A stretch of DNA of 64,000 nucleotides, taken from Flavobacteriaceae bacterium (GTDB lineage: Bacteria > Bacteroidota > Bacteroidia > Flavobacteriales > Flavobacteriaceae). The notes below the pieces were generated by a model. It was not told the origin of the DNA. It made no database searches and was given only the letters and a program-made list of their open reading frames with translations. The position numbers and the translations under genes were made by a program. The stretch's first letter is position 1. The number at the start of each line of letters is the position of its first letter. The DNA lies in assembly GCA_030148025.1 (NCBI GenBank), contig JASBUG010000009.1, positions 62,001 through 126,000 of the forward strand. Reading direction: 5' to 3'. Shown piece after piece: positions 46,358 to 53,668 of this stretch.

Positions 46358-48760
46358 CTATTCAAATTTTAAATATTTTATCAAGTCTACTTTAGTAGCA
46401 TTAAACGCTTTAAAACCGACTACCAAAAATACTAATGCAGATAGTATTATAGGTGTAATTATATAAGGGATTAATGGCATATCAATTCTATACACAAAAT
46501 TATCCAACCAACTTTGCATAAAGTAATAGGCTATTGGCACTAAAATAACCGAAGCAATTAATGTAATTTTCACAAAGCCTTTAATAAGTTGTTGCATTAT
46601 TTCTTTTACCGAAGCTCCTAAGGTCTTTCTAATAGCAACTTCTTTTAATCGTTGTTGAATGGTTAAGGTTGCTAAAGCGAAAAGCCCTAAAAGTGACATT
46701 AAAACAACAACAACTGTTAATATAAAGAATAGGGTTTTCTGTCGTTCATATTCCCTATAAGTTCTAGCAAAACGCTTATTAACAAAGTCTGGGTTAAAAG
46801 GGTATCCTTGCTCAACATTCTTGCTCCAATAGTCTTCAATAAAACTTAGGGTTTCCGAGATATTATCATTCTCAACCTTCACTTGCATCATCCAGAAATT
46901 CTGTTTCATCCAGTCTATAGCATTCCAATGAAAAAATATCATCGGTGGTATTTTCGCATCTAATCCACCAATATGATAGTCTTTTACCACACCAACAACT
47001 TCAAATGATTCATCGCCACTTCCTCCTGTTGTTATTTTCTTTCCTATAGGGTCATTATAAATATTAAAGGCCTTAGCCAAAGTTTCATTAATAAGGACAT
47101 TAGTAGTAGAATCTGATGCGAGTTCTTCCCTTAAGTTTCTTCCTTGAGCAATTTCTATGTTCATCATATCTATATACTCATAGTCTAATGCATTCAACTC
47201 AGTCTGAACTGAAACATCTTTATACATAACATTAGTTGACGTAGAACTACCTCCTCCAATTATAGCAGAATTACTTGTAGTGACCTTTATTTTTGGGTGC
47301 TTTATTAGTTCTTTTTTAGCTAATAAATACTTTTGATATCTATTTTCATATTCATTCATAGGAAGAATAACTACTTGGTCTCCTTCAAATCCAAGATCTT
47401 TATTCATCATATAGTTAACCTGTTGGTAAATTATAAGAGATCCTACTAAGAAAAAACCTGAAATTAAAAACTGAAGCCCTAACATTATATTTCTAGCAAA
47501 AATTCCTTTTTTGCTTCTAGAAATGTTTCCTTTTAATACTTCAACTGTTTTAAATTTTGACAAATATAAAGCTGGTATAATTCCTATAACTAATGACACT
47601 AACACAACTACTCCAAAAACTTTAGATAACAACACAGGAACCAAAATTGTTATTTCTTTTTTTATGAACTCATTAAAAGAAGGTAATAAAAGTTCTACCA
47701 TTACTAATGCCAAAATGTAGGCTATTAGTCCTTGAAACATAATCTCTAACGTATACTGCTTTATTAAAGAAAACTTTGAAAGCCCCAGCGTTTTCTTAAC
47801 ACCTACTTCTTTAGCACGTTGCGTAGCCGAAGCTATAGAGAGATTTATAAAGTTTACACATGAAATTATAATTAATAACACAGACAAAGACAACATTATA
47901 AGTATTAGTTGATAACTCCCTTTCCCTTCTGGACCAGCTTCCTCTGCTATAGTATGTAATCTAATATCAGATAGAGATTCTAAAACCACTTCTGTTCCAT
48001 ATTTTTCATTATACTCATCTGCCGGAATTCCTTCTCTTTTAGCTCCAGGTTCAATAGCATTTCTAAACCATACATCGTTTACTTTTTTATATACGGATTC
48101 TAAGTCTGCTTCATCTGTTAATTTCACAAACAAGTTTCTTGAAAAACTTCCCCAGTTACCAGTAGGCTCCTTTTTATTTTGATATACTGCACTAGGCATA
48201 AAAAAGTGTTTACCTTCCAGTTTATAAACTGTTGTCACAATATAGCTTTGACCTTGAATTGATATGGTTTTTCCAATAGGCGATTCATTTTCAAAATATA
48301 TTTTCGCTTGCTTTTCTGAAATGGCTATATGGTTTCTAGATTGCTCGAATGTTTTCACACTCCCTTCAATGATTTCGAAAGGAAAAAATTCAAAAAAGCT
48401 TGGTTCTCCTCGTAACATATCACGAGTGTAAATTTGTTTTTCATCAACTTTCACAACCCAATCCATATACCAACCATCGCTTAAGTACATAGTAGTAATC
48501 TCTGGAACCTCTTCAACATATTTTTGTCCTTCAACACTTGTACTTGTGTCCCAAATTTCGCCATCAGACATTCTATGGATTACTCTATATGATGTATCTT
48601 TAAAAGGGTTTGATTTATTATAATCTTGCTCATCATTTAGATATAATAGCACTATTAATAATCCTGCAAAACCTAAGGTTAACCCAAGTACATTTATAAT
48701 AAGATGCAGCCAGTTTTTCTTACTGTTTCTATAAAATATTTTAAACCACGTTTGTATCAT
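46358..48760 (-). CDS. MacB/FtsX-type ABC transporter permease
   Basis: This 800-residue permease has an initial membrane helix (about 18-40), a periplasmic MacB-like domain, an FtsX core with three helices (about 285-420), a second periplasmic part and a second FtsX core near the C-terminus with TLTIQQRLKEVAIRKTLGAS. This double-FtsX build is typical of Bacteroidota. Such permeases do not pump through the membrane but transmit force to a periplasmic adaptor (mechanotransmission), expelling antibiotics, peptides or lipids. It is the last gene of the operon adaptor-ATPase-permease, 39 bp after the ATPase gene. Confidence 0.92.
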   Translation of the reverse strand: MIQTWFKIFYRNSKKNWLHLIINVLGLTLGFAGLLIVLLYLNDEQDYNKSNPFKDTSYRVIHRMSDGEIWDTSTSVEGQKYVEEVPEITTMYLSDGWYMDWVVKVDEKQIYTRDMLRGEPSFFEFFPFEIIEGSVKTFEQSRNHIAISEKQAKIYFENESPIGKTISIQGQSYIVTTVYKLEGKHFFMPSAVYQNKKEPTGNWGSFSRNLFVKLTDEADLESVYKKVNDVWFRNAIEPGAKREGIPADEYNEKYGTEVVLESLSDIRLHTIAEEAGPEGKGSYQLILIMLSLSVLLIIISCVNFINLSIASATQRAKEVGVKKTLGLSKFSLIKQYTLEIMFQGLIAYILALVMVELLLPSFNEFIKKEITILVPVLLSKVFGVVVLVSLVIGIIPALYLSKFKTVEVLKGNISRSKKGIFARNIMLGLQFLISGFFLVGSLIIYQQVNYMMNKDLGFEGDQVVILPMNEYENRYQKYLLAKKELIKHPKIKVTTSNSAIIGGGSSTSTNVMYKDVSVQTELNALDYEYIDMMNIEIAQGRNLREELASDSTTNVLINETLAKAFNIYNDPIGKKITTGGSGDESFEVVGVVKDYHIGGLDAKIPPMIFFHWNAIDWMKQNFWMMQVKVENDNISETLSFIEDYWSKNVEQGYPFNPDFVNKRFARTYREYERQKTLFFILTVVVVLMSLLGLFALATLTIQQRLKEVAIRKTLGASVKEIMQQLIKGFVKITLIASVILVPIAYYFMQSWLDNFVYRIDMPLIPYIITPIILSALVFLVVGFKAFNATKVDLIKYLKFE

Positions 48761-48799: not shown

Positions 48800-49501
48800 T
48801 TAATTTACAAGCACGTCCATTTTATATTCGTTTTCTTTTTCAGAAACAACAATTCCATCCTTAAGTGTTATGATCCTGCTAGAAAACTGTGCATCGTACG
48901 ATGAGTGCGTTACCATTACTATAGTTGCTCCAGAGGAATGCAACTCGGTTAACAACTCCATAACCTCATTACCATTTTTACTATCAAGATTTCCTGTTGG
49001 CTCATCGGCTAAAATTAATTTAGGATTAGTAACCAAAGCTCTAGCTACAGCCACACGCTGTTGTTGACCACCTGATAGTTGTAAAGGATAGTGTTTAGCC
49101 CTATGAGCTATCCCAACACGTTCTAAAATCTCTAAAACTCTTTTTTTACGTTCGGAAGATTTTACATTATTATAAATAAGTGGTAGTTCTACATTTTCAT
49201 AAACTGTAAGCTCATCAATCAGGTTAAAGTTTTGAAATACAAATCCAATATTGGCTTTACGAAGTCCTGAACGTTCTTTTTCTGCATAATTAGATACTTC
49301 TTCACCATCAAAACTATAGCTTCCTGAATTTGGAGAATCAAGCAATCCTATAATGTTAAGCAAAGTAGATTTACCACAACCCGAAGCTCCCATAATAGAG
49401 ACAAACTCGCCTTGTTTAACTTCAAGGTTTAACTTGTTGAGTGCCGTAGTTTCTACTTCTTCGGTGCGATATATTTTTGTTAAGTCTTTTATTGTTATCA
49501 T
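48800..49501 (-). CDS. MacB/LolD-type ABC transporter ATPase
   Basis: The 233-residue ATPase has Walker A GASGCGKST, signature LSGGQQQRVAVARAL, Walker B LILADEPTGNLDSKNG and the switch His in VTHSSYDA. The wording ADEPTGNLD and the partner FtsX-type permease place it with MacB/LolD. It energises the permease encoded next. A 74-bp gap separates it from the adaptor gene upstream, with no terminator, so it is read from the sigma-54-type promoter at 50847-50863. Confidence 0.93.
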   Translation of the reverse strand: MITIKDLTKIYRTEEVETTALNKLNLEVKQGEFVSIMGASGCGKSTLLNIIGLLDSPNSGSYSFDGEEVSNYAEKERSGLRKANIGFVFQNFNLIDELTVYENVELPLIYNNVKSSERKKRVLEILERVGIAHRAKHYPLQLSGGQQQRVAVARALVTNPKLILADEPTGNLDSKNGNEVMELLTELHSSGATIVMVTHSSYDAQFSSRIITLKDGIVVSEKENEYKMDVLVN

Positions 49502-49575: not shown

Positions 49576-50820
49576 TTAATTGATGTTTATTTCTTCAACG
49601 TTTTCAAAATCGTCATAACTAGAGGTAATGACTCTATCTCCTTCTTTTAATCCCTCAAGTATTTCATAATAATAAGGATTCTCTCTTCCTATTTTTATAG
49701 AACGCTTTACAGCTTTGTTATTCGAGTCAAGTACAAATACCCACTTTCCATTTGTAGCGTTATAAAATTGTCCTTTATTAACTAATAGCGCTTTGCTGTT
49801 ACCAGACATAAATACTTTTGTATTTAATGACATGCCTCGTTTTACATTACTTGGTAAAGAGTCCTTTTTAAATTGTAATTCGATCATAAACTGTCCTTGC
49901 ACCACTTCAGGATGAATTTTTTTCAATTCAACTTGATAAGAATCAGATTCAAGAGTCGTTATCCCTTGGATGCCTTCTCTTAATTTTGATATATAATATT
50001 CATCAACATTGGCTACAAGTTTAAATCCGTCAAGCACATCAATTTTCCCAATAGGTTGCCCTTGATTATAGTTCTTCCCTAATACTGGATTAAAAGACGA
50101 TAATAATCCATCAACAGGTGCTTTTACTATAAAGTTCTCTTTGTTCTTTTTAAGTAACTCCAAACTCTTTTGCATATTTTTTAAGGATTCATTGATACGT
50201 GCCAGTTGTACACTTCTGCTTTTATTTTCTTCAGAAGCTTTCTTTTTAATAACCTCATTACGCTCCTTTTGAAATTGGTATTCCTGAACCGTTTTTTCGT
50301 AGTCTAACCTGGCAATAATCCCCTTTTGATATAAAGTAGTATCTGTTGCATATTGTCTATTAGCATTTACATAATCATTGCTAATACTTAACAGCTGCTG
50401 ATCCAGATTTAGTTGCTGATTTTTTATACTAACTCTAATATTCCTCAGGTTATTAATTTGTTCTATCATAGCTGTTTCCTGAGTTAAATAATTTAACTCT
50501 GCTGTTGGATTGTATACTCTTAAAAGTGGCATTCCTTCAATTACTCTCTGCCCACTTTCTGCATAAACCTCAGCTACAGACCCTCCTTGAATTACATTGA
50601 TTAAAACAGACGTTTTAGGTTCTACCACACTATTAAATAAAATAACATCTTCAAAATCATCGCTTTTTACCTTACTAATTTTTAAATCATCTATACTTAC
50701 ATTTACTTGCTTTTTGCGAGTTGCACTAACAACTACAAAGCCACTTAAAGTAATTATTGCTATAGCTAAAAGCAGCATTTTCTTTGGTTTATTGTTTTTC
50801 GACTTTATCTGTCTGTCCAT
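49576..50820 (-). CDS. Periplasmic adaptor (HlyD/MacA-type) of the efflux system
   Basis: This 414-residue membrane-fusion protein has an N-terminal helix (LLLAIAIITLSGFVVVSA), a lipoyl-like half-domain (VINVIQGGSVAEVYAESGQRV), a long alpha-helical hairpin (about 100-220), a second lipoyl half (FIVKAPVDGLLSSFNPVLGK) and a beta-barrel to the C-terminus. It bridges the inner-membrane permease and an outer-membrane channel, which is not in this window. The start at 50820 was chosen over the longer frame (to 50874) because the predicted promoter covers the extra codons, so they could not be transcribed from it. Confidence 0.88.
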   Translation of the reverse strand: MDRQIKSKNNKPKKMLLLAIAIITLSGFVVVSATRKKQVNVSIDDLKISKVKSDDFEDVILFNSVVEPKTSVLINVIQGGSVAEVYAESGQRVIEGMPLLRVYNPTAELNYLTQETAMIEQINNLRNIRVSIKNQQLNLDQQLLSISNDYVNANRQYATDTTLYQKGIIARLDYEKTVQEYQFQKERNEVIKKKASEENKSRSVQLARINESLKNMQKSLELLKKNKENFIVKAPVDGLLSSFNPVLGKNYNQGQPIGKIDVLDGFKLVANVDEYYISKLREGIQGITTLESDSYQVELKKIHPEVVQGQFMIELQFKKDSLPSNVKRGMSLNTKVFMSGNSKALLVNKGQFYNATNGKWVFVLDSNNKAVKRSIKIGRENPYYYEILEGLKEGDRVITSSYDDFENVEEININ

Positions 50821-50846
50821 TTCTTTTAAAATATTTACAAAACATA

Positions 50847-50863
50847 ATTCCAGAAGTGTGCCA
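50847..50863 (-). promoter_or_regulatory. Sigma-54-like promoter of the efflux operon
   Basis: On the minus strand TGGCAC is followed after 5 bp by TGGAAT, close to TGGCACG-N4-TTGCA; the conserved GG of -24 and G of -12 are in the proper register, but the -12 C is an A. The transcript would start about 18 bp before the adaptor ATG. The divergent sigma-54-type activator gene supports the call. Confidence 0.65.
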
Positions 50864-50926
50864 TGAAAAAACAATTAATTAATTATTTGATTTTCAGTTA
50901 ATTAAAATATTTACCCATATTTAAAG

Positions 50927-50964
50927 TGTTCATTTTCGAACATTTATTTGTTCATTTTCAAACA
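50927..50964. promoter_or_regulatory. Tandem enhancer sites for the NtrC-type regulator
   Basis: Two 16-bp copies with TGTTC-N6-GAACA symmetry, at 50927-50942 (perfect) and 50949-50964 (right arm AAACA), share the same N6 (ATTTTC). Their centres are exactly 22 bp apart, about two helical turns. They lie about 65-115 bp upstream of the sigma-54-like promoter and just before the regulator's own ATG. Confidence 0.68.
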
Positions 50965-50975
50965 ACTATGTAATT

Positions 50976-52352
50976 ATGCATATGCGTAAAAAGGAAGCCA
51001 CTATATTAATTGTTGATGATGATGAGGATATTGTTTTTTCAGCTAGGATTAGTTTAAAAAAACACTTCAGTAATATTTTAACTACCAGCAATCCAAAACA
51101 AATAAGTAAGCAATTAACAACTGAAACCGTTGATGTTGTTCTACTCGACATGAACTATCGCATAGGCTTTGAAGATGGTAAAGAAGGTATTTATTGGTTA
51201 AAACACATAAAAGAGCATAGCCCTGAAACGACAGTTATTTTAATGACTGCTTTTGGAAGCGTTAATCTTGCTGTTGAGGCTATCAAGCAAGGTGCTACAG
51301 ACTTTATCTTAAAACCTTGGAATGCTGAGAAATTGTATAGCATTGTAAATGCAGGCGTAGAATTAGCGCGTTCTAAAAGAAAAAACAAACAGTTAGAGAC
51401 AATTCAAAGTCAAAATGATAAGGATTTCCATCAGAAAACCGAACATATCATAGGAGATTCTAATGCCATGAGAGCGTCTATTAACCTTGTTCAAAAAGTG
51501 GCTCCTACAGATGCTAATATTTTAATTCTTGGTGAAAATGGTACAGGTAAATACGTATTTGCTAAAGAAATACATTTACGCTCAAATAGACAGAATCACC
51601 CATTCATTCATGTAGATCTTGGTGCTTTAAATGAGAATTTATTCGAAAGTGAGCTATTTGGCTATGCAAAAGGCGCTTTTACAGATGCTCATAAAGATAC
51701 TATTGGACGTTTTGAACTCGCTAATGGTGGAACTATTTTTTTGGATGAAATAGGTAATTTACCCTTGCATCTTCAATCAAAGCTCCTGACTGTAATTCAG
51801 AATAGAAAAATTACGCGTTTGGGGGAAAGTAAGGAACGTGACATTGATGCGCGTATTATTTGTGCAACAAACGCACCAATACATAAAATGATGGAAGAGG
51901 AAACTTTCAGGCAAGACCTTTTATACAGAATCAATACTATTGAGTTAAATTTACCTTCACTAAGAGAGCGCAAAGAAGATATATCTCTATTATCTGATTA
52001 CTTTTTAAAACAACTTAATCAGCGATACAGAAAACAAATCACAGGTTTTTCACCTGACGCAATTTCTGCATTAAAAAATTATAATTGGCCAGGGAATATC
52101 AGAGAACTAGAACATATCATTGAACGTGCAGTAATTATCACAGATAACAAAGAAATACAAACTGATGATTTACATTTTTCGTCTAAAAAAAGTACTGCAG
52201 CTTTAAATGATAATTTAAATCTAGAAGATGCAGAAAAATTACTAATTCAGCAGGCTATGAAAAAACATCATGGAAATATTTCTAAAGCAGCAAAAGAATT
52301 AGGTTTAACACGTGCTGCTCTATACAGACGTCTTGAAAAGCACAAATTATAA
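50976..52352 (+). CDS. NtrC-family sigma-54-dependent response regulator
   Basis: This 458-residue protein has an N-terminal receiver domain (acidic pocket DDD 14-16, phosphorylation site Asp58 in VVLLDMNY), an AAA+ sigma-54 activation domain and a C-terminal Fis-type helix-turn-helix (NISKAAKELGLTRAALYRRLEKH). The AAA+ domain has Walker A GENGTGK near 186, the sigma-54-contacting loop GAFTDA and the Walker B region FLDEIG. The loop is GAFTDA rather than GAFTGA, a variant I associate with Bacteroidota. When phosphorylated it should bind the enhancer pair upstream and open the efflux promoter. ATG may be at 50976 or 50982. The kinase gene overlaps its stop by one base. Confidence 0.95.
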   Translation: MHMRKKEATILIVDDDEDIVFSARISLKKHFSNILTTSNPKQISKQLTTETVDVVLLDMNYRIGFEDGKEGIYWLKHIKEHSPETTVILMTAFGSVNLAVEAIKQGATDFILKPWNAEKLYSIVNAGVELARSKRKNKQLETIQSQNDKDFHQKTEHIIGDSNAMRASINLVQKVAPTDANILILGENGTGKYVFAKEIHLRSNRQNHPFIHVDLGALNENLFESELFGYAKGAFTDAHKDTIGRFELANGGTIFLDEIGNLPLHLQSKLLTVIQNRKITRLGESKERDIDARIICATNAPIHKMMEEETFRQDLLYRINTIELNLPSLRERKEDISLLSDYFLKQLNQRYRKQITGFSPDAISALKNYNWPGNIRELEHIIERAVIITDNKEIQTDDLHFSSKKSTAALNDNLNLEDAEKLLIQQAMKKHHGNISKAAKELGLTRAALYRRLEKHKL

Positions 52353-53668
52353 TGGGTAGATCGCAATACATACACGTATTTTTACGACTACTGCTGCTAA
52401 TAGTAAATGGAATTGTAATCTATAATTTCATACAAAGTAATTATGTTGTTACAACTATAGGCTTTGCTTTAGTATTTATTCTTCAATTATTCCTTTTTAT
52501 AGATTACTTAAACAAGCAATTTACTGATGCAGAAAAAGCTATAGATTGTTTATTACACGATGATTTTTCGAACTCTATTTCAAAAAAAAATCAATCTAAT
52601 CTTAACAATAAAACTTCAAAACTCTTAAAGAAACGACGAGAAGAAAGTTTAAAACGAGCTTCTGAAACACTTATTTTCTCTAACATTATTGAGAGTTTAA
52701 GTATTGGAATACTGATTTTAAGAAAAGATACCGAGAATACTATTGAAATATTTCAGATCAATAAAGCTTTCACCGATTTTCTTAAAATTCCTAAGTATAA
52801 CAACTGGCACTTATTAGAAGACAAAATCCAGTCACTTTCAAAACTTATTTCAGAATGGAAACAAATGCGTCATGTAGTGTCATTGGTAATCAACGAAGAA
52901 ACTGAGAACTTTTTTTTAAAAACTTCGGTAACACAAACTAATGATTATCAATATCTAATTGTTTCTTTAGAGACCATTCAACAGCTAATTGATAAAAAGG
53001 AAAAAGAAGCTTGGTATAAACTTATGAATGTTATGTCTCATGAAATCATTAATACCATAACACCTATAAGTAGTTTGGCAGAGAGTTTAGAATCCTTATT
53101 GCATGAAGACACCTTAGACAATGAAAATCTGGATGAAGTTACTACTGGACTACAAATAATAAAAAGACGTTCACATCACTTAACATCCTTTGTTGATACC
53201 TACAGGCAATTAGCAGAACTCCCTTTACCTCAAAAGGAAACAACAAATTTAACTTCTTTAATCTCTAATACACTCGATCTGTTTGAACAAGAATTTAAAA
53301 CAAAGAACATTCAGGTTGATTTCAATTCAGACACTATAATTGAAGTTAATATAGACAGAAAACAAATTGAGCAAGTAATTATCAATTTAATATCAAATTG
53401 TTTATACGCTTTAGAAGGTATCGAAACACCTAGAATTACCATTTCTATTCAAGAAATTAATACCAAAACTCAAATGCTCATAACAGATAACGGAATTGGT
53501 ATTCCTGAAGAGATAAAAAGCAATATTTTTATTCCATACTTTACGACAAGAAAAAATGGTTCAGGTATTGGTTTAACATTAGCTAAAAGTATCATGGAGG
53601 CTCATAATGGTAATATTCATTTTAAATCAAATAACCAAAACACAACATTTCATCTTACTTTCAACTAA
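52352..53668 (+). CDS. Sensor histidine kinase paired with the sigma-54 regulator
   Basis: This 438-residue kinase has two membrane helices (about 8-26 and 31-50) with almost no periplasmic loop. A PAS-like cytoplasmic part (about 105-215), the His-acceptor site MNVMSHEIINTITP (His230) and the ATPase domain with N-box ISNCLYALEG, G1 DNGIGIPEE and G2 GSGIGLTLAKS follow. The lack of an outer sensor domain suggests that it senses a signal in the membrane or the cytoplasm. It overlaps the regulator gene (TAATG) and presumably phosphorylates it. This group lacks the classical DHP dimer motif and reads HE-x-x-N. Confidence 0.93.
   Translation: MGRSQYIHVFLRLLLLIVNGIVIYNFIQSNYVVTTIGFALVFILQLFLFIDYLNKQFTDAEKAIDCLLHDDFSNSISKKNQSNLNNKTSKLLKKRREESLKRASETLIFSNIIESLSIGILILRKDTENTIEIFQINKAFTDFLKIPKYNNWHLLEDKIQSLSKLISEWKQMRHVVSLVINEETENFFLKTSVTQTNDYQYLIVSLETIQQLIDKKEKEAWYKLMNVMSHEIINTITPISSLAESLESLLHEDTLDNENLDEVTTGLQIIKRRSHHLTSFVDTYRQLAELPLPQKETTNLTSLISNTLDLFEQEFKTKNIQVDFNSDTIIEVNIDRKQIEQVIINLISNCLYALEGIETPRITISIQEINTKTQMLITDNGIGIPEEIKSNIFIPYFTTRKNGSGIGLTLAKSIMEAHNGNIHFKSNNQNTTFHLTFN

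What the first reader, a model, noticed from the sequence alone, without database searches (positions are those of the whole stretch)
50821..50975. Readable sigma-54 circuit between an efflux operon and its NtrC-type regulator
In 155 bp two 16-bp TGTTC-N6-GAACA sites are seen, centres 22 bp apart, plus a TGGCAC-N5-TGGAAT promoter on the minus strand with proper -24/-12 register, ending about 18 bp before the MacA-like adaptor start. Known biology: NtrC-type activators bind paired enhancers 80-150 bp upstream of sigma-54 promoters. Inference: the response regulator-kinase pair (50976-53668) activates the MacB-like exporter operon and, since one site abuts its own start, may control itself. Membrane-embedded kinase without outer sensor suggests response to membrane-disturbing compounds.
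Basis: partly seen in the sequence, partly recalled or inferred. Interest (0 to 1): 0.72.

Follow-up and report, generated by a model that had tools for sequence, protein, structure and literature searches.

The report
Conserved sigma-54 switch for export pump
The 155-base gap between an export-pump operon and a two-gene signalling pair holds a double binding-site motif and a sigma-54-type promoter motif that recur in all 35 close relatives compared; the signalling pair is predicted to use them to switch the pump on and likely to hold down its own genes, a known kind of circuit that is unusually well preserved here.

Summary
Alone, one site or box is no more than chance. Conservation decides. 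All 36 close loci (window plus 35) keep both sites and a divergent box with GG at -25/-24 and G at -13, 61-64 bp from site 1. In 199 genomes of the family the paired site occurs in 14, once each; all 14 are among the 16 with this regulator.

Best reading: a dedicated NtrC-type, RpoN-dependent switch for the adaptor-ATPase-permease operon. Added here: site 2 lies in the spacer of a conserved TTG-N20-TAnnTATG element, read as the regulator's own primary-sigma promoter, predicting a near-leaderless message and negative autoregulation. Elsewhere in the phylum the operator can sit between two divergent sigma-54 boxes, or beside one facing the regulator. Promoter distances suggest helical phasing; replication was weak.

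The membrane-stress signal is untested; the kinase also has a predicted cytosolic PAS-like domain. Sigma-54 control of FtsX-like ABC permeases was already predicted (PMC12316311). There are no binding or transcription data.

The parts
50927..50942 (.). Enhancer/operator site 1, TGTTC-N6-GAACA (exact palindrome); centre about -98 from the predicted sigma-54 start
   Evidence: present in 36 of 36 close loci with 7-10 of 10 fixed bases; 1.57 bits per column vs 0.74 in the stretch between sites and promoter
50949..50964 (.). Enhancer/operator site 2, TGTTC-N6-AAACA; centre about -120; lies inside the -33/-7 spacer of the regulator's predicted own promoter
   Evidence: (1.69 bits per column)
50848..50863 (-). 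Sigma-54 (-24/-12) promoter TGGCAC-N5-TGGAA for the exporter operon; predicted start near 50837
   Evidence: GG at -25/-24 (required by the scan) and G at -13 (not required) in 36 of 36 close loci, 61-64 bp from site 1; 1.34 bits per column
50947..50950 (+). Predicted -33 element TTTG of the regulator's own primary-sigma promoter
   Evidence: [TC]TTG-N20-TAnnTATG in 36 of 38 loci of the window's clade
50971..50978 (+). Predicted -7 element TAATTATG (Bacteroidota consensus TAnnTTTG, one mismatch); T50971, A50972, T50977 and G50978 invariant in the alignment of 36
   Evidence: consensus and position from PMC9723704
50982..52352 (+). NtrC-type response regulator (receiver, AAA+ sigma-54 activator with GAFTDA loop, Fis-type HTH). 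Start codon predicted at 50982, not the 50976 ATG of the ORF call, which lies inside the -7 box
52352..53668 (+). Sensor histidine kinase: two predicted membrane helices joined by a 3-residue turn, no periplasmic domain, predicted PAS-like fold at residues 119-208, H-box MNVMSHEIINTITPI
49576..50820 (-). HlyD/MacA-like periplasmic adaptor; ATG at 50820 (MDRQI..., start conserved in relatives) rather than the upstream TTG
48800..49501 (-). MacB/LolD-type ABC ATPase
46358..48760 (-). FtsX-type permease with two MacB periplasmic core domains (ADOP-like duplicated permease)

Best explanation
The gap 50821-50981 is predicted to be a dedicated two-way switch in which the phosphorylated NtrC-type regulator likely binds the two 16-bp sites, would activate RpoN-polymerase at the -24/-12 box to express the adaptor-ATPase-permease operon, and would block its own primary-sigma promoter. 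Shown by sequence comparison: the paired operator, its 22-bp spacing, the divergent GG-N10-G box 61-64 bp away, the TTG-N20-TAnnTATG element straddling site 2, their conservation, and the linkage of operator and regulator. Inferred: that the regulator itself binds (operator found only beside its gene; recognition helix near LTRAALYRR where the operator is found, different in L035 where it is not), that RpoN reads the box (RpoN present with the C-terminal box ARRTVAKYRE), that dimers on the two sites lie about two helical turns apart and assemble into the active ring, that the regulator-kinase message starts at or next to its AUG and is repressed through site 2. Not known: the signal and the exported compound.
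For: Conservation: both sites and box in 36 of 36 close loci; the site 1 to -24 gap has SD 0.8 bp while the -12 to adaptor-start distance runs from 24 to 98 bp. Linkage: paired operator in 14 of 199 family genomes, one place each, all among the 16 genomes with the regulator at E <= 1e-150, 0 of the other 183, reversed-pattern control 0 (Fisher 1e-19); the two without a match carry degenerate copies (L080, L081). Depth: pair in 110 of 137 loci, lowest regulator identity 47%. Exporter-side TGGYAY box at 53 or 61-64 bp in 66 of 66 same-family loci with a pair, 49 of them with G at -13. Divergent adaptor in 35 of 35 close loci and in all 15 of L069-L083. RpoN in the own genome (box read). Regulator domains PF00072, PF00158, PF02954. 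Primary-sigma element in 36 of 38 clade loci.
Against: No binding, transcript or expression data. The -12 base is A in the window and C in only 26 of 57 boxes at 58-68 bp; 7 of those 57 have A at -13. The activator loop is GAFTDA, not GAFTGA; GAFTDA is counted as functional in D. vulgaris (passages of PMC4641369) but was not tested here. The -7 box has one mismatch to TAnnTTTG; leaderless messages were only 5.5% in F. psychrophilum; [quoted passage not shown] johnsoniae RNA-seq (passage of PMC7366714). 27 of 137 loci, and 31 of 50 in the later sets, lack a recognisable pair, among them loci with a very similar recognition helix (for example L211, L212, L215). RpoN in every family genome gives no co-occurrence information. 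The negative sign of autoregulation is inference from position.
Confidence: 0.8

Rival explanations
1. The two sites serve only the regulator's own promoter (auto-repression), and the sigma-54 box is fired by one of the other two strong sigma-54 activators of the genome.
For: Two other strong PF00158 proteins exist in the genome; site 2 overlaps the regulator's own promoter element.
Against: The site 1 to -24 distance is held at 61-64 bp in 36 of 36 close loci although the stretch between carries few bits per column. In L084, L103 and L109 the operator pair lies 493-518 bp from the regulator start yet keeps its distance of 63, 53 and 53 bp to the exporter-side box.
Confidence: 0.08
2. The -24/-12 box is not an RpoN promoter; the exporter is driven by another sigma factor and the GG/G pattern is part of some other conserved element.
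For: The -12 C is often absent; 7 of 57 boxes have A at -13, and 17 of 66 same-family loci have no box with G at -13.
Against: GG-N10-G holds in 36 of 36 close loci; many more distant loci show TTGA or TTGC at -12; the box lies beside a sigma-54 activator gene; F. psychrophilum has mapped promoters with -24/-12 elements (PMC9723704 section 15).
Confidence: 0.06
3. The circuit is positively, not negatively, autoregulated: the activated regulator raises its own expression, and the TAnnTATG element is a weak or non-functional promoter.
For: In other families a second sigma-54 box faces the regulator 52-54 bp from the operator (8 of 110 loci; 3 more of 19 with a pair in the later sets).
Against: Of 66 same-family loci with a pair, 3 have any regulator-side TGGYAY box, at 14, 72 and 85 bp and none with G at -13; the window has none; TTG-N20-TAnnTATG is kept in 36 of 38 clade loci.
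Confidence: 0.2

Closest known systems
E. coli glnAp1/glnAp2-glnLG (NtrBC) circuit (recalled, not from a call)
   Same: Paired NtrC sites that serve as enhancers for a sigma-54 promoter and overlap a primary-sigma promoter, giving activation plus repression
   Different: Here the two promoters diverge, the target is an ABC exporter, the operator was found once per genome beside its regulator, and the second promoter motif is of the Bacteroidota -33/-7 type
ZraSR / AtoSC-type two-component systems with NtrC-type regulators
   Same: Same regulator architecture; kinase catalytic half resembles AtoS/ZraS (NCBIfam hits; ZraS among Foldseek hits)
   Different: Below the equivalog cut-offs of both; kinase has no periplasmic sensor domain; different target
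PEP-CTERM-type PrsR regulator (TIGR02915), the best NCBIfam hit of the regulator
   Same: NtrC-type response regulator, 412.5 bits
   Different: Below its cut-off of 502.6; the PrsK partner model scores 70 of 300 bits on the kinase
Bce-type modules of Firmicutes (BceRS-BceAB; abstract and outline of PMC3023708)
   Same: Kinase of the intramembrane-sensing kind, gene-linked to an ABC transporter
   Different: Regulator is of sigma-54 type, the exporter has a separate adaptor and a duplicated permease; whether the transporter takes part in sensing is unknown here
Predicted sigma-54 control of FtsX-like ABC permeases (COG0577) in Bacteroidia, gamma-Proteobacteria and Opitutia (PMC12316311, passages)
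   Same: Same target class and sigma factor, predicted by promoter matrix
   Different: The passages seen name no regulator, enhancer site or kinase and do not list Flavobacteriia for this COG; the activator pipeline kept only proteins with exact GAFTGA, which most rows of this family (GAFTDA) would fail
F. psychrophilum SM4 (sigma-54) promoters (PMC9723704, section 15 part 1 and passages)
   Same: Mapped -24/-12 promoters in a flavobacterium with three PF00158 activators
   Different: The selection in Table 2 lists chaperones, gliding and envelope genes, no such exporter; the full list was not read

Membership tests
NtrC-type sigma-54 activators (bEBP) | Receiver + Sigma54_activat AAA+ + Fis-type HTH | tested here: met
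   Pfam PF00072, PF00158, PF02954 all above cut-off
NtrC-type sigma-54 activators (bEBP) | GAFTGA sigma-54 contact loop | tested here: inconclusive
   GAFTDA in the window; among 41 rows above 70% identity GAFTDA 32, GAFTGA 6, GAFTNA 3 (three own-genome copies and two duplicates included); GAFTDA counted as functional in D. vulgaris
Sigma-54-dependent promoter | GG at -25/-24 and GC at -13/-12, N10 apart | tested here: inconclusive
   GG-N10-G in 36 of 36 close loci; -12 C not met in the window (A), C in 26 of 57 boxes
Sigma-54-dependent promoter | Transcription lost without rpoN | not testable with these tools
   needs experiment
Bce-type module | Kinase with two membrane helices and short loop | tested here: met
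   (3-residue turn in the model)
Bce-type module | OmpR-type response regulator (recalled) | tested here: not met
   NtrC-type regulator
Bce-type module | Permease with one large extracellular loop, no adaptor (loop from abstract of PMC3023708; no adaptor recalled) | tested here: not met
   two MacB core domains and a separate adaptor
Bce-type module | Transporter required for signalling | not testable with these tools
   needs deletion of the transporter with a reporter
ZraSR / AtoSC equivalogs | NCBIfam curated score | tested here: not met
   AtoC 363 of 714, ZraR 333 of 760, AtoS 112 of 646, ZraS 104 of 479 bits
PrsR/PrsK (PEP-CTERM) equivalogs | NCBIfam curated score | tested here: not met
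   TIGR02915 412.5 of 502.6, TIGR02916 70.3 of 300 bits
Darobactin-type exporter (DarBCD) equivalogs | NCBIfam curated score | tested here: not met
   DarC 182 of 450, DarD 292 of 375, DarB 86 of 700 bits

The most novel reading that the evidence does not exclude
This is one instance of an export-control module spread through Bacteroidota whose operator pair and recognition helix have been held across classes while the promoters around it were swapped: exporter-facing sigma-54 plus a repressed primary-sigma promoter (window type), two sigma-54 promoters facing away from one central operator, or a single sigma-54 promoter facing the regulator, with promoter distances stepping by about one helical turn. 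The kinase has no outer sensor, so the exporter itself would be the sensor: a Gram-negative counterpart of Bce flux-sensing modules.
Probability: 0.22. Interest if true: 0.68.

Novelty: new variant of a known kind. Interest (0 to 1): 0.45.

Why it matters
It assigns a specific regulator, operator and promoter to a class of Bacteroidota ABC exporters whose control is otherwise, as far as the searches here went, only predicted in bulk, and shows that the operator can be read from sequence comparison. It makes two questions directly testable: what a kinase with no outer sensor domain responds to, and whether enhancer-promoter geometry in these short sigma-54 control regions is set by helical phase.

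Tried and rejected
Single-site statistics: rejected as evidence, both motifs occur at chance rate alone. RpoN co-occurrence: uninformative, 199 of 199 genomes have it. A wider regulon in the own genome: five places match the exact operator; the four outside the window have no partner site better than 6 of 10 bases and no away-facing TGGYAY-N7-G box within 110 bp (L057 has TGGYAY boxes at 75 and 80 bp without G at -13). Of 24 sigma-54-like boxes (reversed pattern: 9) one search printed 21 (no row for L125, L127, L132): 17 lie inside mechanical ORFs, 4 between them, and only the window's has an operator nearby.

Helical phasing: noticed after seeing the data. Discovery: 92 away-facing TGGYAY-N7-G boxes within 110 bp fall at 42-43, 52-54, 61-64, 72 and 74 bp, with one at 60 and one at 69 outside; boxes without G at -13 were left out of this count; collapsed to 15 family/side entries, Monte Carlo p 0.0014. 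I then fixed the classes and took further loci: 27 (8 with a pair) and 23 (11 with a pair). Strict boxes in class: 12 of 18, but 10 of the 18 come from families f23 and f29 already seen (7 of 10 in class; 51, 51 and 32 bp outside); in families not used before 5 of 8 (binomial 0.019), outside at 67, 76 and 82 bp. A Rayleigh test on those 8 at period 10.5 gives 0.077, a period scan 0.42; all entries together 0.0004. I treat phasing as suggestive.

Row handling: L069 and L071 were dropped as duplicates of L022 and L027 (same sequence by eye). L035-L037 and L039-L054 (33-47% identity) were left out of motif counts. Searches fetched 60 of the rows that had no locus, by rank; lower rows were not fetched. 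Of the new rows, G682:C355 (contig end) and G418:C12 were not used; all new rows were. One search imposed the 22-bp spacing; one search left it free between 20 and 23 (ties to 22) and again gave 22 for the 36 close loci; over its 77 loci it gave 22 in 56, 21 in 17, 20 in 4. In one search L023 was mis-cut (26 bp) and is a bad row; the 6-bp linker between the sites is also conserved (1.34 bits). Family labels come; L001-L034 and L038 were put in f1 from their record titles, not by a call. One search looked only 600 bp upstream, so farther pairs (L086, L195) count as misses.

Kinase fold: one model, mean pLDDT 79.5, pTM 0.44. Foldseek rank 1 is a WalK model, ranks 2-8 LOV-kinase or photoreceptor constructs (long alignments, rmsd 12.7-20.4), ZraS rank 12 (rmsd 5.3 over 237 columns). 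PAS-like is my reading of the fold order; Pfam calls no PAS domain.

Literature: searches (0 papers) showed no title or abstract start that describes this regulator or operator; only open-access papers are held and no supplements were read.

Full report
WHAT IS THERE. The gap runs from the adaptor ATG (50820, minus strand) to the regulator. It holds TGTTCATTTTCGAACA (50927-50942), TGTTCATTTTCAAACA (50949-50964) and, on the minus strand, TGGCACACTTCTGGAA (50863-50848). Site 2 is one base off the palindrome, and the promoter box ends 27 bp before the adaptor start; the predicted start (GG at -25/-24) is 50837, 17 bp before it. The adaptor start at 50820 is conserved in relatives. Either motif alone is at chance level in 64 kb.

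GENES. Regulator: receiver, sigma-54 activator, Fis-type HTH. Kinase: HATPase. Exporter: HlyD/MacA-like adaptor, MacB/LolD-type ATPase, FtsX permease with two MacB core domains. The genome has RpoN (its box ARRTVAKYRE is visible) and two other strong sigma-54 activator proteins, besides four weak matches.

CONSERVATION, CLOSE. The search for related loci gave 54 loci; 35 are close orthologues at 73-82% identity, by title Tenacibaculum, Polaribacter, Kordia, Lutibacter and other Flavobacteriaceae. In all 35 the adaptor diverges from the regulator and the kinase follows it. All 36 rows (window included) have both sites, 7 to 10 of 10 fixed bases each (L023 lowest), and a GG-N10-G box (GG was required by the scan, G was not). 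With spacing left free, site spacing is 22 bp in every one of them and the gap from site 1 to the box 61-64 bp, SD 0.8 against 16 for the -12 to ATG distance. Mean information per column: sites 1.57 and 1.69, linker between them 1.34, promoter box 1.34, site 2 to regulator 1.16, stretch between site 1 and promoter 0.74, 5' leader 0.71.

LINKAGE. In 199 genomes of the window's family, 16 have the regulator at E <= 1e-150. The paired pattern with up to one mismatch occurs in 14 genomes, one place each, just upstream of the regulator; all 14 are among the 16; none among the 183 others; the reversed control gives none. Fisher 1e-19. The two without a match have degenerate pairs (L080, L081). So the operator behaves as private to its regulator, and no second target was found in the own genome.

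WHO BINDS. The recognition helix is LTRAALYRR or a near variant (INRTALYRR, LTRGALYRR, LSRAALYRR, LTRASLYRR) in the rows with TGTYC-N6-GRACA operators; L035 at 45% has ITRQTLYNK and no such pair in its gap. Against: several distant rows with a near-identical helix have no recognisable pair. This is correlation, not binding data. The sigma-54 contact loop is GAFTDA in most rows.

OWN PROMOTER. [TC]TTG-N20-TAnnTATG brackets site 2 in 36 of 38 clade loci; the other two (L022, L027) read TAnnATTG. In F. psychrophilum the primary-sigma box TAnnTTTG lies at -12 to -5 (PMC9723704, passages and section 15 part 1). The -33 element TTTG comes from B. fragilis; the same passage says it could not be identified in F. 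johnsoniae (PMC7366714), so that half is less sure. Four nt separate the box from the ATG in 28 of 36 close loci, which places +1 on its A; 3 nt in 5 (the window among them, +1 at 50983, one base into the ATG at 50982) and 7 nt in 3. I therefore predict a leaderless or near-leaderless regulator-kinase message, a start codon at 50982 rather than 50976, and repression when site 2 is occupied. One operator serving as enhancer and repressor resembles glnAp1/glnAp2 (recalled).

DEEPER RELATIVES. 137 loci were scanned: window, L001-L034, L038, L070, L072-L111, L150-L209. A pair scoring >=16 occurs in 110, against 0.29% of shuffled upstreams, in 13 families, 66 loci being f1, lowest regulator identity 47%. 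In two later sets it occurs in 19 of 50, so the operator is widespread but not universal. Three arrangements appear. Window type: exporter-side box only. Bidirectional: boxes on both sides, the regulator-side one at 52-54 bp with G at -13, in L192, L095, L096, L109, L152, L155, L159, L204 (L204's exporter-side box lacks G at -13), and in L244, L251, L257 of the later set; L164 has 52 and 60. Regulator-facing only: L107, L110 (42 bp), L179 (50 bp) and, with a second box of doubtful meaning, L092 (41 bp), all without G at -13. L091, L097, L101, L102 look similar but fall below the threshold.

DISTANCE CLASSES. Away-facing boxes with G at -13 sit at 42-43, 52-54, 61-64, 72 and 74 bp, with one each at 60 and 69. 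The pattern was noticed after the fact; a fixed-class test on unused families gave 5 of 8 in class, 1.8 expected, but the Rayleigh test on these was 0.077. Suggestive only.

KINASE. Hydropathy gives two N-terminal membrane windows in the window's kinase and in many full-length relatives; a few rows (L033, L083, L101) show only one above the cut-off (no count made). The model has helices 3-28 and 32-68 joined by three residues, then a PAS-like alpha/beta unit at 119-208 and the catalytic core; Foldseek ranks a WalK model first, then LOV-kinase constructs, with ZraS at rank 12. So 'no outer sensor' holds as a prediction, but a cytosolic sensor is possible, and the membrane-stress inference is open.

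PRIOR WORK. PMC12316311 (passages) predicts sigma-54 control of COG0577 permeases in gamma-Proteobacteria, Opitutia and Bacteroidia and calls this first evidence; its activator list required exact GAFTGA. PMC3162934 passages treat GAFTGA filtering; PMC4641369 passages count GAFTDA as functional. PMC3023708 abstract describes Bce modules. Searches showed no description of this operator or regulator.

VERDICT. Interest is moderate.

Noticed in passing
G000:C2:17813-17828 (L055), outside the window: TGTTCCACGTGGAACA, an exact match to the operator pattern that looks like a parS centromere site (label recalled), so that hit is likely not a regulator site.
   Followed up: no
G000:C9:139136-139151 (L118): Intergenic sigma-54-like box TGGCATAACAATTGAA 142 bp before an ORF whose N-terminus looks like Lon protease (by eye); F. 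psychrophilum has a mapped sigma-54-type promoter before lon.
   Followed up: partly
window 46358-48760 vs L001-L034: The window operon has one permease gene; many relatives carry two or more permease-like genes in tandem behind the adaptor and ATPase.
   Followed up: no
L002, L003, L004, L006, L012, L021, L029, L030, L034, L038, L070: The -12 element is itself TGGCA or TGGTA, giving a second -24-like box 11 bp downstream of the first; unexplained.
   Followed up: no
L091, L092, L097, L101, L107, L110: Operator-like sites precede a regulator-facing TGGCAY box whose -13 base is not G in any of the six; possibly a different -12 preference or not a sigma-54 promoter.
   Followed up: partly
L083, L087-L090, L093, L105, L156, L160, L167, L172, L174-L178, L188: 17 same-family loci keep the exporter-side TGGYAY box at 53 or 61-64 bp but without G at -13; in L167, L172 and L188 a TTG sits one base nearer, as if the -24/-12 spacer were one base shorter.
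   Followed up: partly
L031 (Polaribacter sp. MSW5): Regulator and kinase each match in two pieces, as if frameshifted or misassembled, while the operator and promoter box are intact.
   Followed up: no
L035, gap before 6995: A 45% relative with a changed recognition helix has a GTGTAAAAATATTTTACAC palindrome instead of the TGTTC pair, and its divergent operon starts with a 449-aa ORF that looks like an outer-membrane efflux (TolC-type) protein by eye; no family search was made.
   Followed up: no
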